Below are positions 17,328 to 46,871 of a stretch of DNA of 64,000 nucleotides, piece after piece. The stretch lies in NCBI RefSeq assembly GCF_027568395.1, contig NZ_JANKZL010000013.1, positions 124,001 through 188,000 on the forward strand, read 5' to 3'. A program made the position numbers and the translations under genes. Under the pieces are notes generated by a model that worked only from the letters and a program-made list of their open reading frames with translations, had not been told where the DNA came from and made no database searches. This DNA comes from Aminobacter sp. HY435. GTDB taxonomy: Bacteria; Pseudomonadota; Alphaproteobacteria; Rhizobiales; Rhizobiaceae. How positions within the stretch are numbered: position 1 is the first letter of the stretch; the number at the start of each line of letters is the position of its first letter.

Positions 17328-17337
17328 GGCCTGTCCC

Positions 17338-18531
<1,194 letters not shown>

Positions 18532-29642: not shown

Positions 29643-30890
29643 ATGAGTGGAATTCCGGATCTCGCCGCGATCGAGGCGATGGATGCTGCCGACGTGCTGC
29701 GTCCGATGCGCGACCGCTTTGTCCTGCCCGAGGGGCTGATTTATCTCGACGGCAATTCGCTGGGCGTGGCGTCTGCCGCCGCCTACGGCGAACTCGACAA
29801 GGCCGCCAGGGACGAATGGGGCCATGGCCTCATTCGCAGCTGGAACACTGCCGGCTGGTTCGACATGCCTGTCGAACTGGGTGACCAGATCGGCCGCCTG
29901 ATCGGCGCTGCCCCCGGCCAGACCGTGGTCACCGACACGACCTCGATCAACGTCTACAAGGCGCTGCACGCGGCGATGGGGCTGCGGCCGGGCCGTAACG
30001 TCATCGTTGCTGAAGGCGGCAGCTTCCCGACCGACCTCTACATGGCCGAAGGCGTGGCTTCGACCCGTCCGGGGGCGGTGCTGCGGCTCGAAGGGGTGGA
30101 TGCCCCGGCGATCGAGGAACTGATCGACGACAGCGTCGCCGTGGTCCTGGTCAACCACGTCAATTACAAGTCGGGTGAATTGCGCGACATGAAGGCCCTG
30201 ACCAAGCGCGCCCATGACGTTGGCGCGCTGGTGGTCTGGGATCTCTGCCACACGGCGGGTGCGCTGCCTGTCGATCTCGACGGGGCCAATGCCGACTTTG
30301 CCGTCGGCTGTACCTACAAGTACATCAATGGCGGCCCCGGTGCGCCGGCGTTCATCTATGTCGCCACGCGCCATCTGGCCGAAGCACGGCAGCCGCTCAG
30401 CGGCTGGTGGGGCCATGCCCGGCCCTTCGCCTTCGAGCAGGGCTATGCCGGCGATCCCGGCATCCGCCGCTTCCAGTGCGGCACGCAAGGTATCCTGTCG
30501 ATGCGCGCGCTGAAGGGCGCGCTCGACACCTGGAAGGACGTCGACATGCAGGCTCTTCGCAAGAAGAGCATCGCCTTGACCGATCTGTTCATCCATCTGG
30601 TCGAGGCGAAGTGCGCCGGTTTCGGGCTCAAGCTTGAAAGCCCGCGTGACGGCAACAAGCGCGGCAGCCAGGTGTCGTTCGAGCACGAAAACGCCTACGC
30701 CATCATGCAGGCGCTGATCGAGCGCGGCGTGATCGGCGATTTCCGCGCCCCGGCAACGATCCGCTTCGGCTTCACGCCGCTCTATATCGGCTTCAAGGAC
30801 GTCTGGAACGCGGTCGCCGTGCTCGAAGACATCCTACGCAGCCGCGCCTGGCAGGATCCCCGCTTCGCCGTCAGGTCGGCGGTGACGTGA
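29643..30890 (+). CDS. kynU: Kynureninase
   Basis: This 415-aa fold-type I PLP enzyme cleaves kynurenine to anthranilate and alanine in the cytoplasm. The PLP lysine is K226 within GCTYKYINGGPGAPAF, a motif characteristic of kynureninases; YLDGNSLG near the N-terminus and SGWWGHARPFAFEQGY also match. Length is typical. It is the last gene of the importer operon, so uptake of tryptophan or kynurenine is tied to its conversion. Anthranilate then feeds the CoA ligase at 58618-60243 and the monooxygenase/reductase at 20168-22495. Its 3' end lies 17 bp from an IS remnant, but the gene is intact. Confidence 0.95.
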   Translation: MSGIPDLAAIEAMDAADVLRPMRDRFVLPEGLIYLDGNSLGVASAAAYGELDKAARDEWGHGLIRSWNTAGWFDMPVELGDQIGRLIGAAPGQTVVTDTTSINVYKALHAAMGLRPGRNVIVAEGGSFPTDLYMAEGVASTRPGAVLRLEGVDAPAIEELIDDSVAVVLVNHVNYKSGELRDMKALTKRAHDVGALVVWDLCHTAGALPVDLDGANADFAVGCTYKYINGGPGAPAFIYVATRHLAEARQPLSGWWGHARPFAFEQGYAGDPGIRRFQCGTQGILSMRALKGALDTWKDVDMQALRKKSIALTDLFIHLVEAKCAGFGLKLESPRDGNKRGSQVSFEHENAYAIMQALIERGVIGDFRAPATIRFGFTPLYIGFKDVWNAVAVLEDILRSRAWQDPRFAVRSAVT

Positions 30891-30907
30891 TCAGAAGCGC
30901 ATCAGAA

Positions 30908-31120
30908 GGTTGTGTTGCAAGCTTTTTGATAGCCGCAGAATGGCCGATCACTTGGCGGATTTCAGGCGGCGATCGTCTCGGACTGCTCTTTCGGCGAAGG
31001 GGCTGAATTGCAGGCGAAGCGGCCCTGCAGCTTTCGCATCATCTGAACGATCTCGATGCCAGCCAGAGTAGCGGTTGCTGCCACGAACGCCTTGAAACCC
31101 AGCATCGGACGGACCCGCCG
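30908..31120 (-). mobile_element. IS6-like element remnant (3' end, 213 bp)
   Basis: This stretch is the reverse complement of the right 213 bp of the intact element at 38234-39056, without gaps. It includes the terminal inverted repeat (GGTTGTGTTGCAAGCTTTTT at 30908) and the last 52 codons of the transposase, with four amino-acid changes. Similarity stops abruptly at 31120. Its tip points left, toward kynureninase. It marks the left boundary of the 22-kb block and of the modification island. Confidence 0.9.
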
Positions 31121-31169
31121 GATGGCGGTCCATCCAAACAGACGGTCGGCAGGCGCGCGAAGCGCAGTG

Positions 31170-31841
31170 CTAAGATATGTTCGTTCCTGCATGAAGCGCA
31201 TGTAGAACGCTGACATGCGGCCCGTGATAGGGTGCCAGGAAGTCAAGCGACAGCCCTTCTTCAGCAAAAACTGCTTGTGAATATAGTTTCCGGCCTCCTG
31301 GTGAGGCGAGATGAGCGCTGCCGTTCAGCGCCTGGACGATCGCGATTACCCGATCCTGGCCGCGCAGCGAAGTATCGATTGCGAGACTGGAGCTTCGCAC
31401 GATCTTTGCGGGCAAGGTGTGAAGATCCGCAACCAGCCGCAGCCCCGCTTCCAGAAAATCGACCACCCCGGACAACGGCTGATGGAGGTGATCCAAGACC
31501 GCTTCGGCCGCGTAGCCCCTGCCTGCCGTCAACCATTCGTGGCGCCGCAACCGTCGATCCAGTTCGGCCCTGGCAGGGCCGGCGAAAGCCAGGTTCCTGA
31601 TCAATACATCCCGTGGCTGGTGGGCAAGTGGCAAGGTGAGCCATTCGGGCTTGCCCTGCGGACCATGGACCTCACAGCGGTGCACGCGGCCGCGGCGGTT
31701 GAACTGCACGCAGTCAAAGATGACGAACCAGTCTGCCTCAGCCAGAAGCCGGTAGTACCCTCCATACGGATAGAAATAGGGCTGCATGACGGCGACGACG
31801 CCGTCCCTCGCTGAAGTGTCAAATGCCGGACTGCGCTGCAA
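31170..31841 (-). CDS. WbqC-like family protein
   Basis: This 223-aa protein matches the WbqC family by its conserved start AVMQPYFYPYGGYYRLLAEADWFVIFDCVQFNRRGRVHR and by LRGQDRVIAIVQALNGSAHLASPGGRKLYS. WbqC proteins occur in O-antigen and capsule clusters with aminosugar genes; their reaction is not firmly established, and amino-acid transfer to an amino sugar has been suggested. The C-terminal 15 residues look shorter than in relatives. The stop lies 50 bp from the truncated IS copy, so the end may have been altered when the IS boundary formed. It is the last gene of a four-gene minus-strand operon. Confidence 0.8.
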   Translation of the reverse strand: MQRSPAFDTSARDGVVAVMQPYFYPYGGYYRLLAEADWFVIFDCVQFNRRGRVHRCEVHGPQGKPEWLTLPLAHQPRDVLIRNLAFAGPARAELDRRLRRHEWLTAGRGYAAEAVLDHLHQPLSGVVDFLEAGLRLVADLHTLPAKIVRSSSLAIDTSLRGQDRVIAIVQALNGSAHLASPGGRKLYSQAVFAEEGLSLDFLAPYHGPHVSVLHALHAGTNIS

Positions 31842-31847
31842 CGCCTC

Positions 31848-32801
31848 TCACCCTCCGACATTTGGGTAGAACGCATTGGCAAGGCCGACTACGTGCCGCC
31901 GCAACTTCTCCGATATCGGGTTTTTGAGCGGTACCGCGGTGAATGATTGAAAGCTCTGGCGGTCACACAAGAATCTGTTTCGATCGAATTCCTGTGTTCT
32001 CAAATAGTGAATCACCTTGACCTCATCTAGGTCGCCGAGACCGTTGGCGAGTACGAGATCGTCGTTCGCGCAATTGTAGGCGTGGCCGAGTTGGATGACG
32101 TTGGTGCCGCTGGCGGCGATGGCCAGGGACAACCCGATTTGTGCCTGAAAGCCGATGCCTTCTGGATACTCGCTTATCAGGAACTCGCGGGCAATCTCGG
32201 AATATTTTGCGGCAAGTGGCGCGATCCGTTGAAAAGCAAGCCGGTTGAATGCGACGAAGCCGTAATTGAAATAGGCGGGACAACGACCCCGACTGCCGTC
32301 CGATGCCAGCGAATAGCCCAAGTCTTTCCACTCTCCGACAACGCCGATCCTCGCCAGCAAACTGTTCCAAAGCGCATCGTTGATGGCTGCAATCGGTTTG
32401 GGCCACGGCTGGAAATGCGCCTGCAGTCCGGCTACGCTTGGCGGTGCACTGACAAGCGCCGCGAGCAGATTGTCGAAGCGATTGACCACGCAAGTGTCGG
32501 CATCGCACATGACGACAACATCGGCTCGCGGGCTTTCCTCATAGCGATCATTGCCCGATGCAATCAGCGGGTTGACCCGAACGCTCTCGTGATCGGCGAT
32601 GCGCCACTCCAGCGGATAGTCATGGCTCCATGGCACCTGCCGCAGCACCGTCTCGTAGTCTGCACCGTCGCCGACCGACACGATAATCCGCGCGCTCGAA
32701 AAAGGAGGGCCAAGCCGCGCCAGGGACATGGCTGCCAAGCGTACCATCGAAAACATGCCGGTGGTGGCCGAAATCGGAATGCGGAACTCGACGGTGGTCA
32801 T
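31848..32801 (-). CDS. Putative GT-A-fold glycosyltransferase
   Basis: This 317-aa protein begins MTTVEFRIPISATTGMFSMVRLAAMSL and contains a DxD-type motif in ADVVVMCDADTCVVNRFDNLL (about residue 95), as expected for metal-dependent nucleotide-sugar transferases, although I recognise no named family. The later segment NYGFVAFNRLAFQRIAPLAAKY resembles the acceptor-side region of GT-A enzymes. ATG 32799-32801 overlaps the beta-propeller gene by 4 nt; a longer open frame upstream lies inside that gene and is rejected. It would add a sugar to a small molecule or glycan made by this island. No membrane segment is seen. Confidence 0.6.
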   Translation of the reverse strand: MTTVEFRIPISATTGMFSMVRLAAMSLARLGPPFSSARIIVSVGDGADYETVLRQVPWSHDYPLEWRIADHESVRVNPLIASGNDRYEESPRADVVVMCDADTCVVNRFDNLLAALVSAPPSVAGLQAHFQPWPKPIAAINDALWNSLLARIGVVGEWKDLGYSLASDGSRGRCPAYFNYGFVAFNRLAFQRIAPLAAKYSEIAREFLISEYPEGIGFQAQIGLSLAIAASGTNVIQLGHAYNCANDDLVLANGLGDLDEVKVIHYLRTQEFDRNRFLCDRQSFQSFTAVPLKNPISEKLRRHVVGLANAFYPNVGG

Positions 32802-33832
32802 GCGTGCATCTTGTTGTGGCTGGGGGTGCTGGAGTTGGGCCCGACCAGCAGTGCGCCACCTGGAAGCCTGGCTCGACCGAAGCCGCCGCGGCCAAACCCG
32901 TTGCCGTTGTAAAGCATGACAAGATCCTCTCCCAAGGCCTCGACCGCGGGGTAGGCCTGCATCCATTCGTCCCAGTCCTCCCTGGACGGAGGGTTCGCAA
33001 ATGCAACTTCCTGGCGCCCTATCTCGGCCAGCCCTCGCTCACAAAGGGTGGCTCCCTGCAGGCGATAGGCAGTCTGGCCAGGCTCTCGAAAGCGTTGCGC
33101 GCCACGACTGCAGAACCATAGATGCCGGCTACTGCCTCCGTGCAGAACCGAAGCCCGTGTCAAGCCGGCGCTCTCTCTTGTGAGACCGATTACCAGCCGT
33201 GTGTTCAGGCTCCAGAAAATACCGTCGTCCGAACGCGTATGTCGCAAAGCGTAGTGCGGTTCCAACTGCCCATCGGTCTCGCGCCAGCCGACGCCGCTGG
33301 AGTACCACATCTCGAACCCGCTGGATGTCTGGCGAACGCATGGCGTCGACATGAACCACGGATCATGCGGGCCGGTGGCCAAAAGCGGCCCGTCGGTAAC
33401 TCGCCTGAAGCTGTGCCCATTGTCATCGCTGACAGCCAGCCCAATTGCCAATTGGTAAGGCAGATCGGCCCCGCGAACCATCCCGGTGTAATAGAGGTAG
33501 ACCTGAGAGCCGACCATCAATGCCGTTGCTGGCCCCATGCCGTGGCTGTCGAAGGCTCCCGGCGGTCCATCCTCCAGCACCTGTTCCGAGGAAACGCCCA
33601 GGACACGAAATTCGTCCAATGGGTCAAGATCCGCATACATGATGCGGCTTCGAGGGCCCTCTGCTCTGGCGGCGAAGTAGACCCGCCAATGGCGGTCGCT
33701 CAGACGGAGTATGGTAGGCGCTTGCGCATGGCTCAGCCACCATCGGTGCTCACGAGGCGGCGCCAATACAAGACCCTCGCGACGCCACGGGTTGGTCCGC
33801 AACGCTGCGGCTCTACTATCTCCACCAGCCAT
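32798..33832 (-). CDS. Five-bladed beta-propeller protein of GH43/GH32 type
   Basis: This 344-aa protein has the repeated blade pattern of furanosidase-like propellers: WWLSHAQAPTILRLSDRHWRVYFAAR, SHGMGPATALMVGSQVYLYYTGM, PWFMSTPCVRQTSSGFEMWYSSGVGW and MQAYPAVEALGEDLVMLYNGNG. Acidic residues at blade starts are not clearly conserved as in active GH43 enzymes, so it may be a lectin-like or transferase-related propeller instead. Such proteins are common beside glycosyltransferases in polysaccharide loci. No signal peptide is present, so it acts in the cytoplasm. It lies 4 nt after the acyltransferase gene. Confidence 0.6.
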   Translation of the reverse strand: MAGGDSRAAALRTNPWRREGLVLAPPREHRWWLSHAQAPTILRLSDRHWRVYFAARAEGPRSRIMYADLDPLDEFRVLGVSSEQVLEDGPPGAFDSHGMGPATALMVGSQVYLYYTGMVRGADLPYQLAIGLAVSDDNGHSFRRVTDGPLLATGPHDPWFMSTPCVRQTSSGFEMWYSSGVGWRETDGQLEPHYALRHTRSDDGIFWSLNTRLVIGLTRESAGLTRASVLHGGSSRHLWFCSRGAQRFREPGQTAYRLQGATLCERGLAEIGRQEVAFANPPSREDWDEWMQAYPAVEALGEDLVMLYNGNGFGRGGFGRARLPGGALLVGPNSSTPSHNKMHA

Positions 33833-33836
33833 GTGT

Positions 33837-34499
33837 TCAGATCAGTCTCTTGATGCGCGACGCAGGATAGGGCCCGACCGGATCGCCTCGAGCCGGGATG
33901 ACGCTCTCAGCCGGCAAGTCGCGGGTCACCAGAACCCGGCTGCCGAGAAAACAGCCGTCGCCGACAGTCACGCCATTCTCGACGCCGACCTTGCCAGCCA
34001 GGAAGCAACGCTCGCCGATCCTCGTGCTGCCGCCCAGCCCGACATGGGATGCCAGAAAGCTATAGTCGCCGATCACGCTGTGGTGTCCGATGTGGTTGTT
34101 GCTCCACATCATGACGCCTGCGCCGACCCGGACAAACGGCTGCAGCGTGTTGCCTTCGAGGATAAAGCAGTTCTCGCCGATCGCCGTCGTATAGATGTGG
34201 CATGCGGGATGTATGAAACTTGCAAAGGAATAGCCCCGCCTCACTCCCTCCAGATGGCGGTCGCGACGGAATTCGTTCAGGCGACGATAGCTGAGCGGCC
34301 CCAGGAGCTTCGCCTGGCCCGGCGGATAATGTTGCTCAAGTGTTTCCCACGACACCAGCGGTAGGCCCGCAAAGCTGCCCATAGTTCTATAGCTGGCATC
34401 GACAGTGAAGCCGACGACCCGGTCCGGGCCATGTGCGTCGATGTAGGTCTTCGCTACCTCGGCAATCTGGCCGGCGCCGAAAATAACGATATCAGCCAT
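33837..34499 (-). CDS. NeuD/PglD-like left-handed beta-helix acyltransferase
   Basis: This 220-aa protein has an N-terminal Rossmann-like segment (MADIVIFGAGQIAEVAKTYIDAHG) and a C-terminal hexapeptide-repeat beta-helix (IGENCFILEGNTLQPFVRVGAGVMMWSNNHIGHHSVIGDYSFLA and further turns), the NeuD/PglD layout. The catalytic histidine is probably within NNHIGHHS. These enzymes transfer an acetyl or other acyl group to an amino sugar. The ATG at 34497-34499 fits the family start. It is the first gene of the minus-strand operon, divergent from the radical SAM gene. Confidence 0.82.
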   Translation of the reverse strand: MADIVIFGAGQIAEVAKTYIDAHGPDRVVGFTVDASYRTMGSFAGLPLVSWETLEQHYPPGQAKLLGPLSYRRLNEFRRDRHLEGVRRGYSFASFIHPACHIYTTAIGENCFILEGNTLQPFVRVGAGVMMWSNNHIGHHSVIGDYSFLASHVGLGGSTRIGERCFLAGKVGVENGVTVGDGCFLGSRVLVTRDLPAESVIPARGDPVGPYPASRIKRLI

Positions 34500-34506
34500 G
34501 CGCTGG

Positions 34507-34523
34507 ACACTTCTTTCAAGTGT
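34507..34523. promoter_or_regulatory. Perfect palindrome between the divergent island operons
   Basis: ACACTT and AAGTGT arms flank a 5-bp spacer (17 bp in all), 8 bp upstream of the acyltransferase ATG and about 65 bp upstream of the radical SAM start. It could be a shared operator or a leader hairpin of the acyltransferase message. No regulator gene lies in the island. Confidence 0.4.
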
Positions 34524-34587
34524 AATACCGGTGGGATTTACTGGCGCCGTCGTTGCATATGACAGGCACGCATGCCAAGAGAAAACC

Positions 34588-36237
34588 GTGAGTGTGATCA
34601 AAAGCAGCGTAGAGTTTCAATGGGATGGCGCCGCAACCAGGCGGCGAACTCTTGCTATTTGTCTGATAAATCCGAAATTTGAACCATCCTTCTGGGGGCA
34701 CGACCATGCGCTGCCGCTGATGCATGGCGACAAGCGCTGCTGGATGGTCACTGGCGCCCTGCCGGCGCTGGCAGGCCTCGTGCCGCAGGGTCATCACATC
34801 GAACTGATCGACGAAAACATCGAGGAAATCGACTTCGACGACCTGCGCCGCTTCGATATCATCGGGCTGACCGGGATGATCATCCAGGACAAGCGGATGA
34901 AGGAGCTGCTGCACAAGCTCAAAAGCATGCCAGGGGTCGTGGTGGTCGGCGGCCCCTATGTGTCGGTCCAGCCCGAATCGTTTGCCGGCCTTTGCGATGT
35001 CCGCTTCGTCGGCGAGGCTGAAGAGACTTGGCCAGCCTTCATAAACGCGCTTGCCGAGGGCGCCCCGACGCTTGAGTTGTACCGGCAGAAGGACCGGACC
35101 GACATGTCGACGGTCCCGCCGGCGCGCTACGACCTCATCAAGTCGCAGCATTACATGATGGCCTCGATACAGTTTTCACGCGGCTGCCCATTCCGTTGTG
35201 AATTCTGCGACATCATCACGGTGTTCGGCCGGCGTCCGCGCCTGAAAACCTCCGAACAGCTCATCCGGGAGCTGGAAGGCGTGCGGCGGGCAGGATTTCG
35301 CGTCTGCTTCCTCGTCGATGACAACTTCATCGGCAACAAGGTCGAGGCCAAGAAGTTCCTGCGCAAGCTGATTGAATGGCAGCAGCAGAATGACTACCCG
35401 CTGCAGCTATTCACCGAGGTCAGCATCAATTTGGCGGACGATCAGGAACTCATGGACCTGATGCTGGAAGCGAATTTCCTGCAGATATTCACCGGCGTTG
35501 AATCGCCTCGCGCTGCCTCGCTGAACGAGACGCTGAAGACCCAGAACACGCGGGGCGACGGCCTGGTGGACAAGCTGAGGCGCATCCGTGACAGCGGCTT
35601 CGTGATCACGGCAGGTTTTATCGTCGGGTTCGACAATGACGACGCGCAGATTTTCGACGAGCAGTATGCTTTCATCCAGGAGATGGGGATCGCCCAGGCG
35701 ATCGTCGGCATCCTCACGCCGATTCCGTCCACTCCGCTCTATGACAGGCTGAAGGCGGAAGGCCGTCTCGACTTCGGCCACCCCGAAGTGGCATTCCTGC
35801 CAAAGCAGATGAGCCGCGAAGAGCTTGCCAGCGGGCACGAAGCCTTGATGCTCAGGCTGTTTGAACCAAATGCCTTTTTCGGTCGTCTGCTGCACGGCTA
35901 CAAGGCATCGGACTCGTTCCGCAAGCGGCGGGCGGCGCTAGCGGCGACGTTTCGCCGGCCGACTTTGACCGAAGCCATGGCGCGGCGTGTTGGCGGTTGG
36001 ATGATGGCCGCGAAGCTGGTCCGCGAGTTGGCCAGGCATGGACGTCTGCGCGAAGTGGGCCTCGCCTATCTTCGTTCCTATGTTGGCGACAATCTGCGGC
36101 TGGGCGGTGACGCCATTCCGTTTCCGAGTTTCGTACAACTTTGCGCAATTCACTGGCATTACTACAACATCGCCAGGCAAGAGCGTAAGACGTTCGGCAT
36201 AGCGCAGCCGGGCGAGTTTCCACTGGCGGCCGAATAA
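34588..36237 (+). CDS. B12-binding-domain radical SAM protein (DUF4070 type)
   Basis: About 549 aa. An N-terminal cobalamin-binding-like Rossmann domain (LAICLINPKFEPSFWGHDHALPLM to about residue 180) is followed by a radical SAM barrel with the cluster motif CPFRCEFC in FSRGCPFRCEFCDIITVFG, and a C-terminal DUF4070-like helical region. Relatives include HpnP-type C-methylases and BchE. The B12 domain shows no DxHxxG motif, as in that subgroup. It could C-methylate, cyclise or rearrange an unactivated carbon. The frame is open from 34498, but GTG 34588 or GTG 34594 is the likely start; no strong ribosome site decides. It is followed after 52 nt by the methyltransferase-aminotransferase gene. 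Confidence 0.85.
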   Translation: MSVIKSSVEFQWDGAATRRRTLAICLINPKFEPSFWGHDHALPLMHGDKRCWMVTGALPALAGLVPQGHHIELIDENIEEIDFDDLRRFDIIGLTGMIIQDKRMKELLHKLKSMPGVVVVGGPYVSVQPESFAGLCDVRFVGEAEETWPAFINALAEGAPTLELYRQKDRTDMSTVPPARYDLIKSQHYMMASIQFSRGCPFRCEFCDIITVFGRRPRLKTSEQLIRELEGVRRAGFRVCFLVDDNFIGNKVEAKKFLRKLIEWQQQNDYPLQLFTEVSINLADDQELMDLMLEANFLQIFTGVESPRAASLNETLKTQNTRGDGLVDKLRRIRDSGFVITAGFIVGFDNDDAQIFDEQYAFIQEMGIAQAIVGILTPIPSTPLYDRLKAEGRLDFGHPEVAFLPKQMSREELASGHEALMLRLFEPNAFFGRLLHGYKASDSFRKRRAALAATFRRPTLTEAMARRVGGWMMAAKLVRELARHGRLREVGLAYLRSYVGDNLRLGGDAIPFPSFVQLCAIHWHYYNIARQERKTFGIAQPGEFPLAAE

Positions 36238-36289
36238 GCTTCAATCATGCCGTCCCACGCCATTCGCTTAGTACGTGCCTAGCCGGTCG

Positions 36290-38104
36290 ATGGACGCTTC
36301 CCGTATCTTGCTTGACTATTATGATAGCCGTCTCGCGCTCCATGGCGACACGGCCCGCGGCGCGGCATGGCCGGACGAGCAAGGCCGAACGGTGCGCTTC
36401 GCCGTTGGCCTAGAGATCATCGACAGGGCAAGTCGAGGACGTCCGATTACCCTGGTCGATTTCGGGTGCGGGACCGGCGAGCTTTACCGGCATATCCGTG
36501 ACCGGGGCCTAGACCACATCACTTACATCGGCGTGGATCGGTCCGAGTCGGCTCTCGCCATGGCCAGAACGAAGTTCCCGGGCGTGCCCTTTCACGCCTC
36601 GGACATACTCGACTGTCCAGACAGTGCCCCGGACGTTCTGTCGTGCGATTATGTCTTCGCCAACGGCCTTTTCAACGTCAAGCACACGCTCGATCATGAC
36701 GCCATGTGGCGCTACATGACAGCCACCTTGGATGTGCTCTGGAGCAAGGCACGGGGCGGAATCGTGTTCAATGTGATGTCAAAGATCGTCGACTGGGAGC
36801 GGGACGATCTGTTTCATGTTTCCTACGACGATCTGGCGCGATTTCTCACGGGACTGGCGGGGCGCTCCATCGGCTTTCGGGCCGACTATGGGCTCTACGA
36901 ACTGATGGCCTATGCCCTCAGACAGCACGTCGGCTTGTCCGAGATTTCCAATGATCGAACAGAGGAAATTCGAGCGGAAACGGACAACAAAATCCCCGTA
37001 AGCCGCCCGAAATTGCCTTCTGCCGAGCGTCTTCGGCCCTATCTGTCGATGATTGATCGCAACCGCTGGTACTCCAACACCGGCGATATGGTCAGACTTC
37101 TGACGAAACGACTTTCAAGTTTCGTCGGCGCAAGCCCCGACTGCTTGCGGCTTGCCTCGTCCGGAACCTCGGCGCTTCATGGCGCGATTCTCGCAACGGC
37201 GGGCCGCGCGCACTCTGCCCGACCGCTGGCGCTTTGTGCTGCCTATACCTTCGTGGCGACGGCGGCTGCTGCCGAACAGGCCGGCTACCAGCCATATCTC
37301 GTCGACGTAGATCCGGCTTCCTGGGCGCTCGAACCAGCGATGCTCAGAAACCATCCGATGCTCGGCAAGACAGGGATTGTCCTGGTCACGGCACCTTATG
37401 GCCGTCCCGTACGACAAGCGCCGTGGCAGGAGTTTTCGCAAGCCACCGGAATACCGGTCATCATCGACGCTGCCGCAGCTTTCGACCGCATCCTCGAGTC
37501 GCCCGCGGAGTTCCTCGGCAATGTTCCGGTTGTCGTGAGTTTCCACGCGACAAAGGCCTTTGGGACCGCAGAGGGCGGGGCTGCGTTGAGCACGGACGCT
37601 GAGTTCCTCGATTGCTTTCACGCCTCGCTCAATTTCGGCTTCCTCGGCTCTCGTGAAAGCCGGCTGCCAAGTACCAATGGCAAGATGAGCGAATACCATG
37701 CTGCTGTCGGCCTTGCGGAACTCGATGGCTGGGGTGCAAAGGCGGCCGGCTTCAGCCGGGTCGCCGAGACATACCGTCGGCTGTCCGAACGCTGCGGCCT
37801 CGCTGGCAGGATCGTCGCGGCCCCGGAGATCGGGTCGTGTTACGCATTGTTCGAAAGCGACAGTGCCGAGGAGGTGGCAGCGGTCGAACGGATGCTGCGC
37901 GACGCGCGAATTGGCTGTCGTTTCTGGTATGGGCTTGGTCTGCATCGTGAGCCCTATCTCAGCCGTGCCCCTCGCGACCCGCTGCCTAATACGGAGCATG
38001 TCGCCAGTCGCCTGATTGGCCTGCCGGTGGCCCCCGATCTTTCTGATGTGGATATCAGCCGTGTCGTCAATGCCGTAGCGAGTGGCGTTGGCCCAATGTG
38101 GTGA
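36290..38104 (+). CDS. Methyltransferase-aminotransferase fusion (SAM MTase + DegT/DnrJ)
   Basis: This 604-aa protein joins two enzymes. Residues about 1-225 are a class I SAM methyltransferase (motif I VDFGCGTGELYRHI at about 55-68; a following acidic GVDRSESALAMA). Residues about 240-604 are a DegT/DnrJ/EryC1 sugar aminotransferase with PLP lysine K422 in SFHATKAFGTAEGGAAL and the aspartate of IPVIIDAAAAFD. ATG 36290 is preferred over an upstream GTG at 36275. Such aminotransferases make amino sugars or aminocyclitols from keto precursors; the fused methyltransferase could N-, O- or C-methylate the same product. I know of no standard enzyme with this exact pairing. Confidence 0.85.
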   Translation: MDASRILLDYYDSRLALHGDTARGAAWPDEQGRTVRFAVGLEIIDRASRGRPITLVDFGCGTGELYRHIRDRGLDHITYIGVDRSESALAMARTKFPGVPFHASDILDCPDSAPDVLSCDYVFANGLFNVKHTLDHDAMWRYMTATLDVLWSKARGGIVFNVMSKIVDWERDDLFHVSYDDLARFLTGLAGRSIGFRADYGLYELMAYALRQHVGLSEISNDRTEEIRAETDNKIPVSRPKLPSAERLRPYLSMIDRNRWYSNTGDMVRLLTKRLSSFVGASPDCLRLASSGTSALHGAILATAGRAHSARPLALCAAYTFVATAAAAEQAGYQPYLVDVDPASWALEPAMLRNHPMLGKTGIVLVTAPYGRPVRQAPWQEFSQATGIPVIIDAAAAFDRILESPAEFLGNVPVVVSFHATKAFGTAEGGAALSTDAEFLDCFHASLNFGFLGSRESRLPSTNGKMSEYHAAVGLAELDGWGAKAAGFSRVAETYRRLSERCGLAGRIVAAPEIGSCYALFESDSAEEVAAVERMLRDARIGCRFWYGLGLHREPYLSRAPRDPLPNTEHVASRLIGLPVAPDLSDVDISRVVNAVASGVGPMW

Positions 38105-38233: not shown

Positions 38234-39056
38234 GGTTGTGTTGCAAACTCTTCGGTAACGACCGGCTGGCATGAGGACATCTCCGATCTCTGGAGATCGC
38301 TGCATGTTCAAAGGCCGACATTTCGACCAATCGGTGATCTTGCTGTGCGTTCGCTGGTCTCTGGCTTACGGCTTGAGCCTACGGGATATGAAGGAGATAA
38401 TGGCTGAGCGCGGCATCAGCATCGACCACTCGACAATCCATCGCTGGGTAATCCACTTCTCGCCCGTGCTGCTAGATCGTTTCAATAGGCGCAAACGAGC
38501 AGTCCACTGCAAGTGGCATATGGATGGGACGTATATCAAGGTTCGAGGCCAGTGGATGTATTTGTACCGAGCCATTGATAGCGCCGGCGCCATGGTCGGG
38601 TTCTGGTTCAGCGAGCAACGTGATCTGCCTGCGGCCAAGCGCTTTCTACGCAAGGCTTTGATGCGCCATGGGCGACCGGATCGTATCGTCATCGACGGCA
38701 GCCAGACCAATCGGGAAGCGATCATCTCTTGCGATGCACAGAACCGTCTACGAGATCGGTCGCGGCAATCACTGAAGCTGATTTGCATCCGCCAGAGCCA
38801 GTACCTCAATAACCGGATAGAGCAGGATCATCGGCGCATCAAGCGGCGGGTCCGTCCGATGCTGGGTTTCAAGGTGTTCGTGGCAGCAACCGCTACTCTG
38901 GCTGGCATCGAGATGGTTCAGATGATGCGAAAGCTGCAGGGCCGCTTCGCCTGCAATTCAGCCCCTTCGCTGAAAGAGCAGTTCGAGACGATCGCCGCCT
39001 GAAATCCGCCAAGTGATCGGCCATTCTGCGGCTATCAAAAAGTTTGCAACACAACC
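38234..39056 (+). mobile_element. Intact IS6-like insertion sequence, 823 bp
   Basis: The element is bounded by terminal inverted repeats whose first 16 bp are identical (GGTTGTGTTGCAAACT at 38234 and its complement ending at 39056). It has one transposase gene and the size of IS6-family members. No 8-bp target duplication flanks it, consistent with replicative rearrangement through this copy, or with old age. Partial copies lie at 30908-31120 and 52921-52939. Confidence 0.9.
38271..39002 (+). CDS. IS6-family DDE transposase
   Basis: This 243-aa transposase has an N-terminal zinc-ribbon/HTH region (FKGRHFDQSVILLCVRWSLAYGLSLRDMKEIMAERG) and a DDE catalytic core. The acidic residues appear in WHMDGTYIKVRGQW, RIVIDGSQTN and NNRIEQDHRRIKRRVRPMLGF. 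The first block normally reads DETY in this family; here it is DGTY, so a usually conserved glutamate next to the first catalytic aspartate is lost and activity may be reduced. ATG 38304 (MFKGRHF) is the start found in most relatives; the longer start is listed because it is in frame. Confidence 0.88.
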   Translation: MRTSPISGDRCMFKGRHFDQSVILLCVRWSLAYGLSLRDMKEIMAERGISIDHSTIHRWVIHFSPVLLDRFNRRKRAVHCKWHMDGTYIKVRGQWMYLYRAIDSAGAMVGFWFSEQRDLPAAKRFLRKALMRHGRPDRIVIDGSQTNREAIISCDAQNRLRDRSRQSLKLICIRQSQYLNNRIEQDHRRIKRRVRPMLGFKVFVAATATLAGIEMVQMMRKLQGRFACNSAPSLKEQFETIAA

Positions 39057-39079
39057 TTGGGTGCTCCCATCATACTTCT

Positions 39080-40630
39080 TCAGATGATCGCCTCGATGAG
39101 GAACGGTCCCTTGCGGGCGAGGGCGGTGTCGAACAGGCGGGTGAATTGTTCAATGGTCGAGGCGCGGCCTGCCTCGACGCCCATGCCGCGCGCGAGCGAA
39201 CACCAGTCCAGCTCGGGATTGTCGAGATCGAGCATGCGCCGCGCATTGCGGCCGAAATCGTTGACGCCGACATTGCGCATCTCCCCCTGCAGGATCGCAT
39301 AGGCGCGGTTGGCGAAGATGATGGTCACGACATCGAGGTTCTCGCGCGCCTGGGTCCACAACCCCTGCAGGGTGTACATGCCGCTGCCGTCGGCCTGAAG
39401 GGCGATGACCTTCCGGTCCGGGCAGGCGATCGCCGCGCCCGTGGCGAGTGGAATGCCTTCGCCGATGGCGCCTCCGGTCAACGGAATGTGGTCATGCGGG
39501 TTGAGGCCGGGGGCGAGCACCGCCATTTTGCCAGCGGAGGTGATCGATTCCTCGCAGATGATGGCGTTTTCCGGCAGGGATCGCGCCACGGCGATGGTAA
39601 TTGAATCCGCGTTCAGCGCCCCGGTCGGCGCGGCGATCTCGGGCTGCACGAACCTGTTGGGCACGAACGGTGCGTCTGCGCGGATGCCGGCCTCCTCTGC
39701 AAGCAGCTCGAGCGCTTCGCCGAGGTCATGTTCATGGCCGGCGAGCTCGATCACCTCGCAGCCGGGCGGAAGCATCGTGCTTGGCTTGTGCGGGTAGGCA
39801 AAGAAGCCGACCGGCTGCCTGCCGCCAAGGCAGATGGCGACCTCGAACTCCTTCAATGCCGCGACGGCGAGATCGATGTTGTAGGGCACCGGCCTTGCCG
39901 CCACGCGGCCAGCGCCGCGCTCGGTGCGGTCCGAAGTCTGCGAGAAGAGCGCAGCACCGGTAGCCGCGGCGATCCTGCCGGCGGTTTCGAGGGCGGCGGC
40001 GCGAAGGGCGCGCCCGGCAAGGATGATCACCGTAGTTTTGCCGCTGCGCAGGGCCGCGCCCGCGGCCTTGAGCGCCTCGGGAGAAAGCGCCGGACGCGCC
40101 GGCAGCGTCACCGGTTGGAGCGGTTCCGGCTGGACCTCGCTCCAGGCAGCGTCGGCGGGCAGGATCATCGTCGCGACGCCGCGCTTCATCAGAGCAGCCT
40201 CGAACGCTTCTTCCGTGCGAGCGCGGACGTCGCGCGCGCCGCCGGCACGCCCGACCCAATGCGACATCGGGCGCGCCAGGCCTTCGATGTCGCTGGTCAG
40301 GGGCGCGTCGTACTGCAGGTGGTAGGAGGCGTGATCGCCGACGATGTTGACCATCGGCGTACGCGCGCGCCGGGCGTTGTGCAGATTGGCAAGGCCGTTT
40401 GCGAGGCCCGGTCCCAGGTGCAGGAGCGTGGCTGCCGGCTTGTCGGCCATGCGGGCATAGCCGTCGGCAGCGCCAGTCACGACGCCTTCCGAGAGACCCA
40501 GGACGCATCGCATCTGGGGCTTGCGGTCGAGCGCGGCGACGAAATGCATCTCCGACGTACCGGGATTGGCGAAGCAGACGTCCACGCCATTAATAAGAAG
40601 GACATCGCAGAGCATGTCGGCACCGTTCAT
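39080..40630 (-). CDS. Thiamine-diphosphate-dependent enzyme, acetolactate-synthase-like
   Basis: This 516-aa ThDP enzyme has the three-domain layout of acetolactate synthase and benzoylformate decarboxylase. The catalytic glutamate lies in VLGLSEGVVTGAADGYARM near residue 50; the cofactor motif is ADGSGMYTLQGLWTQARENLDVVTIIFANR with ADG in place of the usual GDG. It would decarboxylate a 2-keto acid and either release the aldehyde or ligate it. It follows gabD by 29 nt in a GABA module, so a role in the fate of a keto acid or semialdehyde is likely. ATG 40628-40630 is preceded by GAGGAGTACCCC. Confidence 0.85.
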   Translation of the reverse strand: MNGADMLCDVLLINGVDVCFANPGTSEMHFVAALDRKPQMRCVLGLSEGVVTGAADGYARMADKPAATLLHLGPGLANGLANLHNARRARTPMVNIVGDHASYHLQYDAPLTSDIEGLARPMSHWVGRAGGARDVRARTEEAFEAALMKRGVATMILPADAAWSEVQPEPLQPVTLPARPALSPEALKAAGAALRSGKTTVIILAGRALRAAALETAGRIAAATGAALFSQTSDRTERGAGRVAARPVPYNIDLAVAALKEFEVAICLGGRQPVGFFAYPHKPSTMLPPGCEVIELAGHEHDLGEALELLAEEAGIRADAPFVPNRFVQPEIAAPTGALNADSITIAVARSLPENAIICEESITSAGKMAVLAPGLNPHDHIPLTGGAIGEGIPLATGAAIACPDRKVIALQADGSGMYTLQGLWTQARENLDVVTIIFANRAYAILQGEMRNVGVNDFGRNARRMLDLDNPELDWCSLARGMGVEAGRASTIEQFTRLFDTALARKGPFLIEAII

Positions 40631-40659
40631 GGGGTACTCCTCGCTGATCGAGCCTGCGG

Positions 40660-42099
40660 TCAAGCCGCCATGTGGGAGACGAACTTGGTCGTCAGGTAGG
40701 CATTTATGGCTTCCGAGCCGCCCTCGGTGCCGTAGCCGGAATCCTTGATCCCGCCAAACGGCACTTCAGGCAAGGCCAGACCGTTGTGGTTGATGGTCGT
40801 CATGCCGGCCTGGATGCGCAGGCCAAGCTGGTGCGCCGTCTCGGAAGAGCGCGTGAAGGCATAGGAAGCGAGGCCGAAGGGCAGGCGGTTGGCTTCGGCG
40901 ATGGCCTCGTCGCGCGTCGAGAACGGCGCGAACACGGCGACCGGGCCGAACGGCTCCTCATTCATGATGCGGGCGTGGCGCGGCACGTTCGAGAGAACGG
41001 TGGGGGCAAAGAAATAGCCGGTGTTGCCGATCCGCCGGCCGCCGGTCCTGAGGTCGGCGCCGTGGTCGACGGCGTCGCGGATCAGCGCCTCCAGGGCAGG
41101 GATGCGGCGCTCGTTGGCCAGTGGCCCCATCTGCGTTCCGGCGTCCAGTCCGTTGCCGACCTTGATCGTCTCCGCCGCCCGGGTGAAGGCGGTGAGCACG
41201 CGGTCGTAGACGCCTTCCTGCACGAGAAAGCGTGTCGGTGCCACACAGACCTGGCCGGCGTTGCGGAACTTGGAGGCGGCAAGGACCTTGACCGCGTTGT
41301 CGATGTCGGCGTCGTCGAAAATGATGGCGGGTGCGTGGCCGCCGAGCTCCATGGTCGAAAGCTTCATGTGCTGGCTGGCAAGGGCGGCAAGCTGCTTGCC
41401 CACGGGTGTCGAGCCGGTGAAGGAGATCTTGCGGATGACTGGATGGGCGATGAGGTATTCCGAAATCTCGGCCGGAACGCCGTAGACCAGGTTGACGACA
41501 CCTGCCGGCACGCCGGCGTCGACAAAGGCGCGGATGAGCTCGGCCGGGGAGGCCGGTGTTTCCTGGGGCGCCTTGACGATGATCGAGCAGCCGGCGGCTA
41601 GCGCCGCGGAAAGCTTGCGCACCACCTGATTGATGGGAAAATTCCACGGCGTGAAGGCCGCCACCGGACCGACCGGGAGCTTGATCGCCATCTGGGTGAC
41701 GCCGGGCGCGCGGGCAGGGATGATCTGGCCATAGGTGCGGCGGCTCTCCTCGGCGAACCAGTCGATGATGTCGGCCGCGGCCATCACCTCGCCCTTCGCC
41801 TCGGCGACAGGCTTGCCCTGCTCGCGGGTCATGATGGTGGCGATCGTGTCGGCGCGCTGGCGCAAAAGATCGGCCGCGCGGCGCATGATCTTCGAACGCT
41901 CGTAGGCCGAAACCGCGCTCCAGACGCCGAAGCCGCGATCCACTGCCTCAAGCGCGGCGTCGAGATCGACCCGGGTGGCATGGGCCACCTTGCCGATCGC
42001 CTCGCCGGTGGCGGGATCGACCACGGCGATGGCGCGGCCTTCGGCCCCGCCGCGCCAGACGCCGTCGATAAGGAGCGGTGTGTCGGGATAGGTCGTCAT
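40660..42099 (-). CDS. gabD: NAD(P)-dependent succinate-semialdehyde dehydrogenase
   Basis: This 479-aa aldehyde dehydrogenase oxidises succinate semialdehyde to succinate. The cofactor loop [15 protein letters not shown], the glutamate region [18 protein letters not shown] and the catalytic cysteine in [12 protein letters not shown] are all readable, and the overall sequence is of the GabD subgroup. ATG 42097-42099 begins [15 protein letters not shown], the family start; the longer frame is not used. It lies downstream of gabT, giving the usual transaminase-dehydrogenase pair for 4-aminobutyrate. Confidence 0.9.
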
Positions 42100-42195
42100 G
42101 ATCTGCTGCTCCGCTTCGGCGTTCGGTCGGGCGCTCACGTCTAGGCCCGGTTGTCGGGCGATGCGCGGCATGTCGCCGCCGCGCATCGCTCGTGA

Positions 42196-43485
42196 TCAGG
42201 CTGCGGCGACTGCCGCTTCGATCGAGGCCTCGAGGATGTCGAGGCCTTCGTCGAGCGTGTCCTCGCCGATGGTCAATGGTGCAAGAAGCCGGATGACGTT
42301 GGCGCGCGTGCCGCAGGAAAGCAGGATGAGACCGCGCTTTTCGCCTTCGGCGACGATGCGGCCGGTCAGTTCAGGGGCAGCCTTTTTCGACTGGCGGTCC
42401 TCGACCAGTTCGAAGGCCACCATCGCGCCCAGGCCGCGAACATCGCCGATGCGCTCCATGCCCTGGCGTTCAGCAATGCCGTGCAGGCGCGCGGTCATGC
42501 GGTCGCCGACCATTGCGGCGCGCGCGCACAGGTTTTCGCTGTCGATGACGTCGAGCACGGCGTTGGCAGCGGCAACGGCGAGGGGGTTGCCGGCATAGGT
42601 ACCGCCGAGCCCGCCGGGATGGGCGGCGTTCATGATCTCGGCCTTGCCGGTGACGGCGGACAGCGGGAAGCCGCCGGCAAGTCCCTTCGCCATGGTGACG
42701 ATGTCAGGCCGCACGCCGGCATGCTCGAAGCCGAACATCTTGCCTGTGCGCGCCATGCCTGCCTGGACCTCGTCGGCGATCAGCACGATGCCGTGGCGGT
42801 CCGCGATCTCGCGCAGCCGGACGAGGAATTCTTTCGGCGCGACATTGAAGCCGCCTTCGCCCTGGATCGGCTCGACGATGAAGGCTGCGATGCGCTCGGG
42901 ATCGATGTCGGCGGCGAAAAGGCGCTCCAGCGCCTCGATCGCATCGTCGACGCCGATGCCCATGAATTCGTTCGGGAACGGCGCGTGGTAAATCTCCGCC
43001 GGGAACGGGCCGAAGTTCTTCTTGTAGGGCGCGACCTTACCGGTCAGCGCCATGCCGAGCATGGTGCGGCCGTGAAAGGCTCCGGCGAAGGCGATCACGC
43101 CGGCGCGCCGGGTGTAGGCCCGCGCCACCTTGATCGCGTTCTCGACCGCCTCGGCGCCGGTGGTAACCAGCATGGTGCGGTTCTCGGCACCGGTGGGCGC
43201 CATGGCATTGAGGCGTTCGGCGAGGCGCACATAGCCTTCATAGGGCGCGACGTGGAAGCAGGTGTGCGTGAAGAGCTGCGCCTGCTCCTGTACTGCCCGC
43301 ATCACGGTCGGGTGGCGGTGGCCGGTGTTGTTGACGGCGATGCCTGCGGCGAAGTCGATGTAGCGCTTGCCGTCGACGTCCCAGAGCTCGGCATTCTCCG
43401 CGCGCGAGGCATAGATGCCGCGCGTGCCCACGCCGCCGGCGACGGCGGCCTTCTGGCGGCCTTGCAATTCTGCTGCTCTGGTCAT
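42196..43485 (-). CDS. gabT: 4-aminobutyrate aminotransferase
   Basis: This 429-aa class III aminotransferase transfers the amino group of 4-aminobutyrate to 2-oxoglutarate, giving succinate semialdehyde. The PLP lysine is in IVTMAKGLAGGFPLSAV, the preceding aspartate in LIADEVQAGMARTG, and the GAFHGRT loop is present. I chose ATG 43485, with AGGGG 9 nt upstream, over GTG 43494, where the AGGGG would be adjacent. The gene is downstream of an XRE-cupin regulator and behind a perfect palindrome. It could also act on 5-aminovalerate or beta-alanine. Confidence 0.9.
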   Translation of the reverse strand: MTRAAELQGRQKAAVAGGVGTRGIYASRAENAELWDVDGKRYIDFAAGIAVNNTGHRHPTVMRAVQEQAQLFTHTCFHVAPYEGYVRLAERLNAMAPTGAENRTMLVTTGAEAVENAIKVARAYTRRAGVIAFAGAFHGRTMLGMALTGKVAPYKKNFGPFPAEIYHAPFPNEFMGIGVDDAIEALERLFAADIDPERIAAFIVEPIQGEGGFNVAPKEFLVRLREIADRHGIVLIADEVQAGMARTGKMFGFEHAGVRPDIVTMAKGLAGGFPLSAVTGKAEIMNAAHPGGLGGTYAGNPLAVAAANAVLDVIDSENLCARAAMVGDRMTARLHGIAERQGMERIGDVRGLGAMVAFELVEDRQSKKAAPELTGRIVAEGEKRGLILLSCGTRANVIRLLAPLTIGEDTLDEGLDILEASIEAAVAAA

Positions 43486-43524
43486 TCTGGTCACCCCTGA
43501 AGAAAGTCAGAGGCGGATTAGCAC

Positions 43525-45149: not shown

Positions 45150-46871
45150 ATGACCGACAATCCGCAACACAGCGAGCCGGCCGCCATGGCCGTGGCTCGG
45201 CGGGCAGGCGCGCAGGTGATGCGGCCGGAAAGCCTCGCCGCGATCCAGCCGTCGCGCCTCAGCGGCGCCCGCGCCTTCATGAACAAGATGCTGCGCGAGC
45301 GCTGGGACATTGCGATTGAGCGTTTCGATGTCGACGCCGACGCCTCCGGCACCGTCGTCTACTCGATCAAGGCCCAGGATCGGGAATTCAGCTTCATCGG
45401 GTTTTCGCGGCCGCCGAGCCGCACCGCACGCACCGGGCGCATCATCGGCCAGGCCTGGGATATGATGGGGACGCTGAACGAGGGGCCTGCCACCGAAGCC
45501 GACATCGACCTTGCCCGCCGCGAAATCCCCAAGCTCTACACCGGCCGCGCCTCGCCCAACGCGCTGATCTGGTGCCGTTCCAACCGTTCGATGCGGGTCT
45601 TCGACCAGACGCTGGAAGCGTTGGCGTCAGGTGTGCAGCCGTCGGTCGCGGACCTGTCCAAGGTCTGCTACCTGATGCGCAACACCGGTCTCGACGGCAA
45701 TGGCACCTTCGGCACGCGGTCGTTCCGTACGCTTGGTCGCGATCATCCGCTCGGCGGCGTGCTGCAGGCGCAGCTGCTCACCGCATATATGATGCGTGAA
45801 TACTCGTGCGACTTGGTGGAGCATCTTGCCCGTCTCAAGTCGGACAAGGCCGTGCCGCTCGACCCGTCGATCCGCAGCTATATCGGCGTCGGCAACGGCT
45901 CGGCGCTTGGCCTGATCTTCTTCGTGCACCGCCACCCACGCCTGCTTGATGCTTTCATCGGCGCGCGCGAGACGGCCATTGCCGCGGCGCGTTCGCTCGA
46001 AAAGGGCGTTGCCGCCACGCGCTTCTCCTATTTGGCCGATCTGCTGGAGACAGCGATCACCTTCCGCCGCCAGGATCGCATGGTCTACGAGGCATTCACC
46101 TCGAGCGACGAGGTTGCCGCCGATCTCGAGGAGATCAAGGAGACCGTGGCCCGGATGCAAGAGAGCGGCACACTGGACGGCGAAAGTCCCGTCTATCCGT
46201 TCGACGCGCTGGTTGGCCGTTTCGAAAGCCGGATCAAGCCGGAATCGATGGAAACGTTCCTGTCGCTGCTGATCGAACTGGTGCCGGAAGAGGCGGACAA
46301 GCTGTTTGCCGAAATCGACGCCCCCGACGAGTTCGTCGTCTCGCCAAGCGAGACACTGGAAAGCCTGGGCGCACTCATTCGCAAGGACTACGACTGGGCG
46401 CTCAAGACGGACATGTCTTCGCCCGATGCCTATAAGTATGTCTGGTACAAGTCCGAGACAGCCGAGGAGCCGAGGCGCGGCGCGCGCGAAGAGGTGCCGG
46501 AGGCCCTCGATCTCGGACTAGACGTCTGCGGCGGCATCCAGGCGCTGACGGCCGACATGGCCGACGAAGACGCCGGCATGACAGTCGCGCGCTTCCTGCT
46601 CAAGTATCCGCAGCACCGCTTCCTCGTCGCCCGTATCCAGAGCCTGCGCGGCAAGCACTTCCATACGCCGCGCGCCAACATCAATGCCGAGGATTTCGTG
46701 CCGATCGATCTCGTGCGGCTGATGAATTGCGGCATCCATGGCGTCGACAAGACGCGCGACTTCCTGAACCGCAACCTGCGCGGCGTGCTCTATCACGGCG
46801 CTCCTACCCGCGACGAGATCCGCACGGGCTACACGGGTACGTGGTTCTACCCTGCGGAGCCGGTCCAATGA
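45150..46871 (+). CDS. Conserved-looking protein of unknown function, 573 aa
   Basis: I do not recognise this family. The protein is soluble-looking, with no signal peptide or membrane segment. Distinctive stretches are REFSFIGFSRPPSRTARTGRIIGQAWDM, GLDGNGTFGTRSFRTLGRDHPLGGVLQAQLLTAYMMREY, YIGVGNGSALGLIFFVHRHPRLL and LKYPQHRFLVARIQSLRGKHFHTPRANINAEDF. Two arginine/serine-rich loops and the HPR motif could be active-site elements. Base use equals that of neighbours, so it is a genuine gene. It begins 1 nt after the IclR stop and overlaps the next gene by ATGA. The context (peptidase-like enzyme, polyamine-type importer, RidA) suggests a catabolic enzyme on a nitrogen compound; no function is claimed. 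Confidence 0.8.
   Translation: MTDNPQHSEPAAMAVARRAGAQVMRPESLAAIQPSRLSGARAFMNKMLRERWDIAIERFDVDADASGTVVYSIKAQDREFSFIGFSRPPSRTARTGRIIGQAWDMMGTLNEGPATEADIDLARREIPKLYTGRASPNALIWCRSNRSMRVFDQTLEALASGVQPSVADLSKVCYLMRNTGLDGNGTFGTRSFRTLGRDHPLGGVLQAQLLTAYMMREYSCDLVEHLARLKSDKAVPLDPSIRSYIGVGNGSALGLIFFVHRHPRLLDAFIGARETAIAAARSLEKGVAATRFSYLADLLETAITFRRQDRMVYEAFTSSDEVAADLEEIKETVARMQESGTLDGESPVYPFDALVGRFESRIKPESMETFLSLLIELVPEEADKLFAEIDAPDEFVVSPSETLESLGALIRKDYDWALKTDMSSPDAYKYVWYKSETAEEPRRGAREEVPEALDLGLDVCGGIQALTADMADEDAGMTVARFLLKYPQHRFLVARIQSLRGKHFHTPRANINAEDFVPIDLVRLMNCGIHGVDKTRDFLNRNLRGVLYHGAPTRDEIRTGYTGTWFYPAEPVQ

What the first reader, a model, noticed from the sequence alone, without database searches (positions are those of the whole stretch)
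31170..38104. Uncharacterised modification island: radical SAM, MTase-aminotransferase fusion, WbqC, GT, propeller, NeuD-like
Six genes in two divergent operons share one 89-bp control region and are flanked by IS copies. They combine aminosugar chemistry (DegT, NeuD-like, WbqC) with B12-type radical SAM chemistry and a glycosyltransferase, but no Wzx/Wzy, priming transferase or secretion gene is present. This looks like a self-contained pathway that makes or decorates an unusual amino-sugar or aminocyclitol. By eye its base use is less GC-rich than its surroundings.
Basis: partly seen in the sequence, partly recalled or inferred. Interest (0 to 1): 0.8.

Follow-up and report, generated by a model that had tools for sequence, protein, structure and literature searches.

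The report
Mobile aminosugar cassette with radical-SAM enzyme
A small, apparently acquired set of six bacterial genes most likely makes an unusual methylated amino sugar and attaches it to something in the cell; the same set turns up in unrelated bacteria, and it gives a working context to a group of B12-dependent radical enzymes whose job was unknown.

Summary
The six genes are real, and the set recurs. It is complete, in the same divergent layout, in another genome of the same family (L122, genome G743) and collinear in a Herminiimonas MAG (L003). Four Roseobacter loci have five of the families with another glycosyltransferase and no methyltransferase match. Without the radical-SAM gene, the module aminotransferase/acyltransferase/propeller/WbqC/methyltransferase occurs on an Acuticoccus plasmid and a Bacteroidota plasmid. 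The island has 60.3% GC against 64.9%; nine genus mates lack a radical-SAM match. One full IS6 lies on the right, only a 215-bp inverted remnant on the left.

Best reading: an acquired cassette working like viosamine islands. Host dTDP-4-keto-6-deoxyglucose is aminated, N-acylated, O-methylated, probably C-methylated by an HpnP-like B12 radical-SAM enzyme, and transferred by a dedicated GT-A-type enzyme. The eight cassette radical-SAM proteins form one clade (100/99) apart from relatives without the cassette. The acceptor and the roles of WbqC and the propeller are unknown; all product chemistry is inferred.

The parts
30906..31120 (-). 215-bp remnant of the IS6 element's end, inverted relative to the full copy
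   Evidence: 98% complementary to 38844-39058; one of only two matches in the genome
31170..31841 (-). WbqC-family protein, role unknown; C-terminal tail of relatives missing
   Evidence: PF08889 E 6e-28; alignment A3
31848..32801 (-). putative GT-A-type glycosyltransferase (DAD motif)
   Evidence: no Pfam; invariant D100-A-D102 and H265; weak GT-A profile hits; same family in L003 and L122
32798..33832 (-). propeller-type, glycosidase-like protein ('glycosylase' in public annotation of relatives)
   Evidence: profile A5 against PDB: 1,2-beta-oligomannan phosphorylase 5e-20, also beta-fructosidase and anhydro-galactosidase chains; annotation of relatives
33837..34499 (-). NeuD/VioB-type hexapeptide-repeat N-acyltransferase
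   Evidence: Hexapep 3.5e-17; TIGR03570 2.4e-33, below cut-off
34500..34587 (.). 88-bp divergent intergenic region
   Evidence: read directly; no sigma-70-type match in 34450-34650
34588..36237 (+). B12-binding radical SAM enzyme with DUF4070 (HpnP-like architecture)
   Evidence: CxxxCxxC invariant in alignment A2; clade in tree
36275..38104 (+). class I methyltransferase (about residues 1-225) fused to DegT aminotransferase (about 230-609)
   Evidence: Methyltransf_31 1.4e-9, DegT 1.9e-45; same fusion in L003 and L004
38234..39056 (+). complete IS6-family element (transposase 38271-39002)
   Evidence: NF033587 E 9e-68 over 202 of 202 positions

Best explanation
A horizontally acquired cassette that builds and transfers one rare amino sugar. 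Inferred steps: (1) the host's dTDP-sugar pathway (RmlB found) supplies dTDP-4-keto-6-deoxyglucose; (2) the DegT domain aminates C-4 (DesI/VioA type) to dTDP-4-amino-4,6-dideoxyglucose; (3) the NeuD-like enzyme acylates the amine; (4) the fused methyltransferase O-methylates a hydroxyl; (5) the HpnP-like B12 radical-SAM enzyme adds a C-methyl group to the sugar or its acyl arm; (6) the DAD-motif GT transfers the residue to an acceptor already present in the cell, as a cap, since no polymerase or exporter was found beside it. WbqC and the propeller belong to the module but their reactions are unknown. Shown: the gene families, the recurrence of the set, the clade of cassette radical-SAM proteins, the host RmlB, the atypical GC. 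Inferred: every reaction, the order, the acceptor.
For: Whole set in the same divergent layout in G743/L122, with the methyltransferase unfused, and collinear in L003; five families plus another GT in L016, L023, L042 and L025, and without adjacent WbqC in L019. In 5 of 7 cassette genomes searched, the only WbqC match of the genome is the one at the cassette (places compared). Core without rSAM on an Acuticoccus plasmid and in Bernardetia. MTase fused to the AT in the window, L003 and L004, and to a GT61 in L004, so it probably serves the same product. Substrate: DesI is the best NCBIfam match of the AT domain, 2e-37, and of the two other cassette ATs scanned; a Cyanobium MAG (L021) has AT, WbqC and MT next to rmlA and rmlB, both over cut-off; a related plasmid cluster has an FdtA/QdtA cupin. 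Host RmlB. AT and GT of these families are adjacent in L044 and L187 too. Precedents: vioA, vioB, vioT and vioM mutants lose the modified viosamine or its methyl group (PMC3927599, passages); GenK C-methylates the aminoglycoside gentamicin X2 (PMC4039129, start of abstract only). The eight cassette rSAMs, window included, form one clade, 100/99.
Against: AT scores are far below the DesI cut-off (129 of 650 bits) and other sugar aminotransferases also match. NeuD is below its cut-off. No methyltransferase-domain match is seen in L008, L016, L019, L023, L025 or L042, so O-methylation is not a constant part. L122's AT is only 39% identical to the window's, less than those of L003 (52%) or L042 (46%). 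No acyl-donor genes such as vioS/vioR/acp are present. NeuD, propeller and WbqC also sit together in clusters that look like pseudaminic/legionaminic-acid loci (the two L137 genes tested match below cut-off), so the module is not tied to dTDP sugars. Six of the eight rSAM clade members were found by way of the AT query and one is the window; only G743 is an independent case. L008 has rSAM, AT and NeuD within 13 kb but no WbqC match in its assembly and no propeller match in the locus. The missing WbqC tail could mean decay.
Confidence: 0.62

Rival explanations
1. The radical-SAM enzyme modifies a lipid, as HpnP methylates hopanoids, and merely sits beside an ordinary amino-sugar gene set.
For: Same three-domain architecture as HpnP and HpnP-like proteins (PMC10697835, passages). 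Relatives outside the clade stand without cassette genes in the 15 of 15 loci examined.
Against: The cassette proteins form their own clade, and each of its eight full-length members lies within about 13 kb of AT and NeuD genes; the independently found member, G743, has the full set.
Confidence: 0.13
2. A protein-glycosylation cassette acting on a dedicated secreted protein (tail-Collar proteins in the Roseobacters).
For: Three tandem Collar-type genes adjoin the cassette in L016, L019, L023 and L042, in two orientations (two L016 proteins confirmed by Pfam); no polymerase or exporter among the flanking proteins scanned in the window.
Against: The window's genome has no Collar match; L003, L008, L025 and L122 show none in the stretch held; G743 has a Collar triple only on another contig.
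Confidence: 0.15
3. A dead remnant of a larger polysaccharide cluster, no longer working after IS6-driven rearrangement.
For: Left IS is only a remnant, the WbqC tail is missing, and one same-genus relative has the right-flank genes in a different arrangement.
Against: Six open frames, with the radical-SAM cysteines and the GT DAD motif kept; a set of the same extent is present in G743 and, as far as its contig reaches, in L003.
Confidence: 0.1

Closest known systems
Viosamine island of Pseudomonas syringae (vioA, vioB, vioM, vioT, vioS, vioR, acp)
   Same: Small island with a sugar aminotransferase, acyltransferase, methyltransferase and dedicated transferase that cap a glycan with an N-acylated, methylated amino sugar (PMC3927599, passages)
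   Different: No acyl-chain genes here; extra B12 radical-SAM protein, WbqC and propeller; methyltransferase fused to the aminotransferase; GT without a Pfam family; no flagellar gene among the flanking proteins scanned
HpnP and HpnP-like B12 radical-SAM proteins
   Same: B12-binding, radical SAM and DUF4070 domains (PMC10697835, passages)
   Different: A clade tied to amino-sugar genes; [quoted passage not shown]
Core aminotransferase/NeuD/propeller/WbqC/methyltransferase modules (Acuticoccus plasmid L182, Bernardetia plasmid L186)
   Same: Same five families close together
   Different: No radical-SAM match in the stretch held; other GTs (GT61 annotated in L182); L186 lies among further glycosyltransferases and ABC-transporter ATPase genes
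Nonulosonic-acid-type clusters with NeuD, propeller and WbqC (L128, L131, L137)
   Same: Share three of the families
   Different: Carry NeuB/PseI-type genes (L137: TIGR03569, TIGR03586 and a PseF match, all below cut-off; L128 and L131 by reading) and show no rSAM match

Membership tests
Viosamine (mVio) island | sugar aminotransferase of VioA/DesI type | tested here: inconclusive
   DesI is the best NCBIfam match but 129 of 650 bits; no VioA sequence was compared
Viosamine (mVio) island | acyltransferase, methyltransferase and dedicated GT in the same island | tested here: met
   (NeuD below cut-off; GT by motif and weak profile only)
Viosamine (mVio) island | vioS, vioR and acp acyl-donor genes | tested here: not met
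   the six genes are none of these and the gaps between them are at most 88 bp, so there is no room for another gene
Viosamine (mVio) island | product: modified viosamine on flagellin | not testable with these tools
   needs mass spectrometry
HpnP (hopanoid C-2 methylase) | B12-binding + radical SAM + DUF4070 | tested here: met
   architecture as given in PMC10697835
HpnP (hopanoid C-2 methylase) | falls in the HpnP clade | not tested
   no reference HpnP was placed in the tree
HpnP (hopanoid C-2 methylase) | squalene-hopene cyclase in the genome | not tested
O-antigen/capsule locus | polymerase, flippase, exporter or priming transferase beside the set | tested here: not met
   none among ten flanking proteins scanned, including the two nearest on the left and the four nearest on the right; the whole window and genome were not scanned for this
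Composite transposon | two complete IS copies | tested here: not met
   one full IS6 and a 215-bp inverted remnant

The most novel reading that the evidence does not exclude
The HpnP-like radical-SAM clade C-methylates a nucleotide-linked or transferred N-acyl amino-dideoxysugar, giving a branched, doubly methylated aminosugar used as a cap on a surface molecule or secreted protein: a new tailoring chemistry for bacterial surface glycans, carried by a module that moves between lineages, and a first assigned role for part of the HpnP-like family.
Probability: 0.35. Interest if true: 0.72.

Novelty: new variant of a known kind. Interest (0 to 1): 0.55.

Why it matters
PMC10697835 (passages) calls HpnP-like proteins uncharacterised. 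Here one clade of that architecture is tied to an amino-sugar gene set in Rhizobiaceae-type bacteria, Roseobacters and a Nevskiaceae MAG (and, by a fragment, a Herminiimonas MAG), which turns the question into a direct test: does this enzyme put a methyl group on a sugar carbon? It also shows that WbqC and a glycosidase-like propeller travel with NeuD-type acyltransferases in several amino-sugar settings, a lead on uncharacterised families.

Tried and rejected
Aminocyclitol product: not favoured. DesI/PseC-type sugar aminotransferases are the best family matches of the AT domain; against this, 3 of its 39 PDB matches are scyllo-inositol/inosose aminotransferases, the best at 6e-18 and third in rank.

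Collar proteins as the general substrate: adjacent in 4 of the 8 non-window cassette loci (L003, L008, L016, L019, L023, L025, L042, L122), but no Collar match in the window's genome. Kept only as a rival. A paper search on it (10 of 332 listed) showed nothing on point.

Composite transposon: rejected, the left IS is a remnant. Clean empty site: not found; six regions of five relatives were compared, none shows the kynureninase near the TPP-enzyme gene, and L189 (same genus) has the right-flank genes in another arrangement. One value ('FumA?', GC3 0.46) comes from a wrong frame that I set, and is dropped.

Placing true HpnP in the tree by its neighbours: not decided. Promoter scan of the divergent gap: nothing found. 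Rfam and tRNA scans of the window: none.

Paper searches: viosamine with radical SAM, 0 papers; viosamine with N-acetylglycine, 0; radical SAM/C-methyl/aminotransferase/O-antigen, 12 of 35 listed; cobalamin/radical SAM/nucleotide sugar/glycosylation/flagellin, 12 of 154 listed; B12-binding/radical SAM/DUF4070, 15 of 1,626 listed. No listed title or abstract start describes this set; the unlisted ones I did not see. WbqC gave 12 papers, several of them chance matches of the letters; I saw passages of two. The library is open-licence PMC only. From recall, not from a call: that 2po3 is DesI, glycoside-hydrolase family numbers of the PDB hits, Qui4N-glycyl O-antigens carrying wbqC, and the anthrose parallel (one search listed one paper on it, not read); none is used as evidence.
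Full report
What is there. The window is part of a 4.6-Mb genome in 29 contigs. Between a 215-bp IS6 remnant (30906-31120) and a complete IS6 (38234-39056) lie two divergent gene groups. Minus strand: NeuD-like acyltransferase, propeller, GT, WbqC. Plus strand: B12-binding radical SAM protein with DUF4070, then a class I methyltransferase fused to a DegT aminotransferase. The gap between the groups is 88 bp. The two IS copies are the only matches in the genome and are inverted to each other. GC of 31121-38104 is 60.3% against 64.9% in the rest of the window; 420 overlapping stretches of equal length outside range from 63.3 to 67.3%. Third-position GC is 0.67-0.76 in the six genes and 0.82-0.87 in the eight flanking genes read in frame. 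The ten flanking proteins scanned are a branched-chain-type permease, kynureninase, a TPP enzyme, aldehyde dehydrogenase, class III aminotransferase, IclR regulator, peptidase M19, a solute-binding protein, tryptophan dioxygenase and one without a hit.

Is it conserved as a set? A scan of public genomes with the fused protein gave 43 loci. Profile searches of these show: L003 (Herminiimonas MAG) with the fused gene, NeuD, propeller, GT, WbqC and the start of the radical-SAM gene at the contig end, all on one strand; L016, L023, L042 and L025 with WbqC, AT, NeuD, radical SAM and propeller plus a GT2-type gene (for L023 judged from sequence likeness) but no methyltransferase-domain match; L019 the same without adjacent WbqC (its genome has one WbqC elsewhere); L008 with radical SAM, AT and NeuD within 13 kb and no WbqC match in its assembly. 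The other loci have fewer of the families. A search with the propeller profile hit 25 of 385 genomes of the class and 24 of 398 of the phylum, the window's genome included in both. I fetched 20 regions from 19 of the 43 other genomes with a hit. One, L122 in genome G743 of the same family, has WbqC, GT, propeller, NeuD and a free-standing methyltransferase on one strand and radical SAM plus AT on the other: the window's layout with the fusion taken apart. Its AT is a more distant one (39% identity). In the 20 regions NeuD is present in 18, DegT-type AT in 14, WbqC in 13, methyltransferase in 4, radical SAM in 1.

The radical-SAM clade. Searches with the radical-SAM profile found close members (E below 1e-200) only in the window's genome (1 of 385), in the window's genome and G743 (2 of 398), and in the centre genome itself among 228 Roseobacter-family genomes. 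None of nine genus mates has a match at 1e-30. In a 39-row tree the eight full-length cassette proteins, window included, are one side of a branch with support 100/99; L003's fragment was too short to include. Loci around the next relatives contain none of the other families: 12 of 12 (from 12 of the 29 genomes with such a hit) and 3 of 3 (of 77 plasmid records). Caution: six of the eight clade members came in through the AT query and one is the window itself, so G743 is the one independent confirmation.

The module without the radical-SAM gene. An Acuticoccus plasmid has AT, GT61, acetyltransferase, propeller, a hypothetical protein, WbqC and methyltransferase in one run (families checked). 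A Bernardetia plasmid (Bacteroidota) has AT, WbqC, methyltransferase, acetyltransferase and propeller in a row. Other plasmids have related sets with an FdtA/QdtA cupin and GNAT (L184), with GNAT (L185), or with NeuD and a sulfotransferase (L183). In a Cyanobium MAG (L021), AT, WbqC and methyltransferase at 9878-13364 are followed by rmlA and rmlB at 15107-18212, both over cut-off. At the simple end, an Asticcacaulis locus (L044) has AT, the same GT family and, by reading the sequence, a hexapeptide acyltransferase between what read as clpP and lon. NeuD, propeller and WbqC also occur in clusters that look like nonulosonic-acid loci (L128, L131, L137; two L137 genes matched NeuB/PseI and PseF models below cut-off).

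How it probably works. See Best explanation. The AT domain is nearest to DesI among NCBIfam models, far below its cut-off, and the host has RmlB. NeuD would acylate the amine. The fusion of the methyltransferase with AT in three loci and with a GT61 in L004 argues that it serves the same product, although the Roseobacter sets do without it. The GT has an invariant DAD motif and weak similarity to GT-A enzymes, and is adjacent to an AT in L044 and L187. The radical-SAM enzyme has the architecture of HpnP-like proteins, of which only several HpnP-clade members have confirmed methyl transfer (PMC10697835, passages seen); GenK is a precedent for radical-SAM C-methylation of an aminoglycoside (PMC4039129, start of abstract). 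WbqC has no credible PDB relative by profile (best 0.6) and is called functionally uncharacterised in PMC5532660 (passage). The propeller resembles phosphorylase and glycosidase structures by repeated partial matches; whether its catalytic residues are kept was not tested.

Comparison with the known. The nearest described system that I could read is the viosamine island of Pseudomonas syringae (PMC3927599, passages): vioA, vioB, vioM and vioT correspond in kind to AT, NeuD, methyltransferase and GT. The window lacks vioS, vioR and acp and adds three families. I therefore say that it works like such an island but do not file it as one.

Limits. WbqC in the window ends soon after the last invariant column, so some decay is possible. 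The L003 propeller frame ends early next to the GT frame, which may be a MAG error.

Noticed in passing
L016:7124-9216, L019:7711-9899, L023:7137-9200, L042:6967-9004: Three tandem Collar-type genes (two in L016 confirmed as PF07484), those read starting with a signal-peptide-like stretch, adjoin the cassette in four Roseobacter loci, in two orientations; unexplained.
   Followed up: partly
L122-L141 (regions around propeller hits): NeuD-type acyltransferase in 18 of 20 and WbqC in 13 of 20 propeller neighbourhoods, including clusters that look like nonulosonic-acid loci: a recurrent partnership of uncharacterised families.
   Followed up: partly
L044:9941-12613: Three-gene island (AT, GT, hexapeptide acyltransferase read from sequence) between genes that read as clpP and lon in Asticcacaulis: perhaps the minimal version.
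   Followed up: no
L187:4707-10889: On a Rhodobacteraceae plasmid an AT-GT pair of these families and a weak NeuD match lie beside an FG-GAP repeat protein; a sulfotransferase is annotated further on.
   Followed up: no
L003:4689-6615: The propeller frame ends early and the GT frame overlaps it; possible frameshift or assembly error in this MAG.
   Followed up: no
window 29643-30890, 39080-43494 and 57785-58621: The island lies in a region with kynureninase, a TPP enzyme, aldehyde dehydrogenase, class III aminotransferase and tryptophan dioxygenase, suggestive of amino-acid or tryptophan breakdown.
   Followed up: partly
window 46727-47605: 292-aa ORF without a Pfam hit at 1e-10, just upstream of the peptidase M19 gene.
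   Followed up: no
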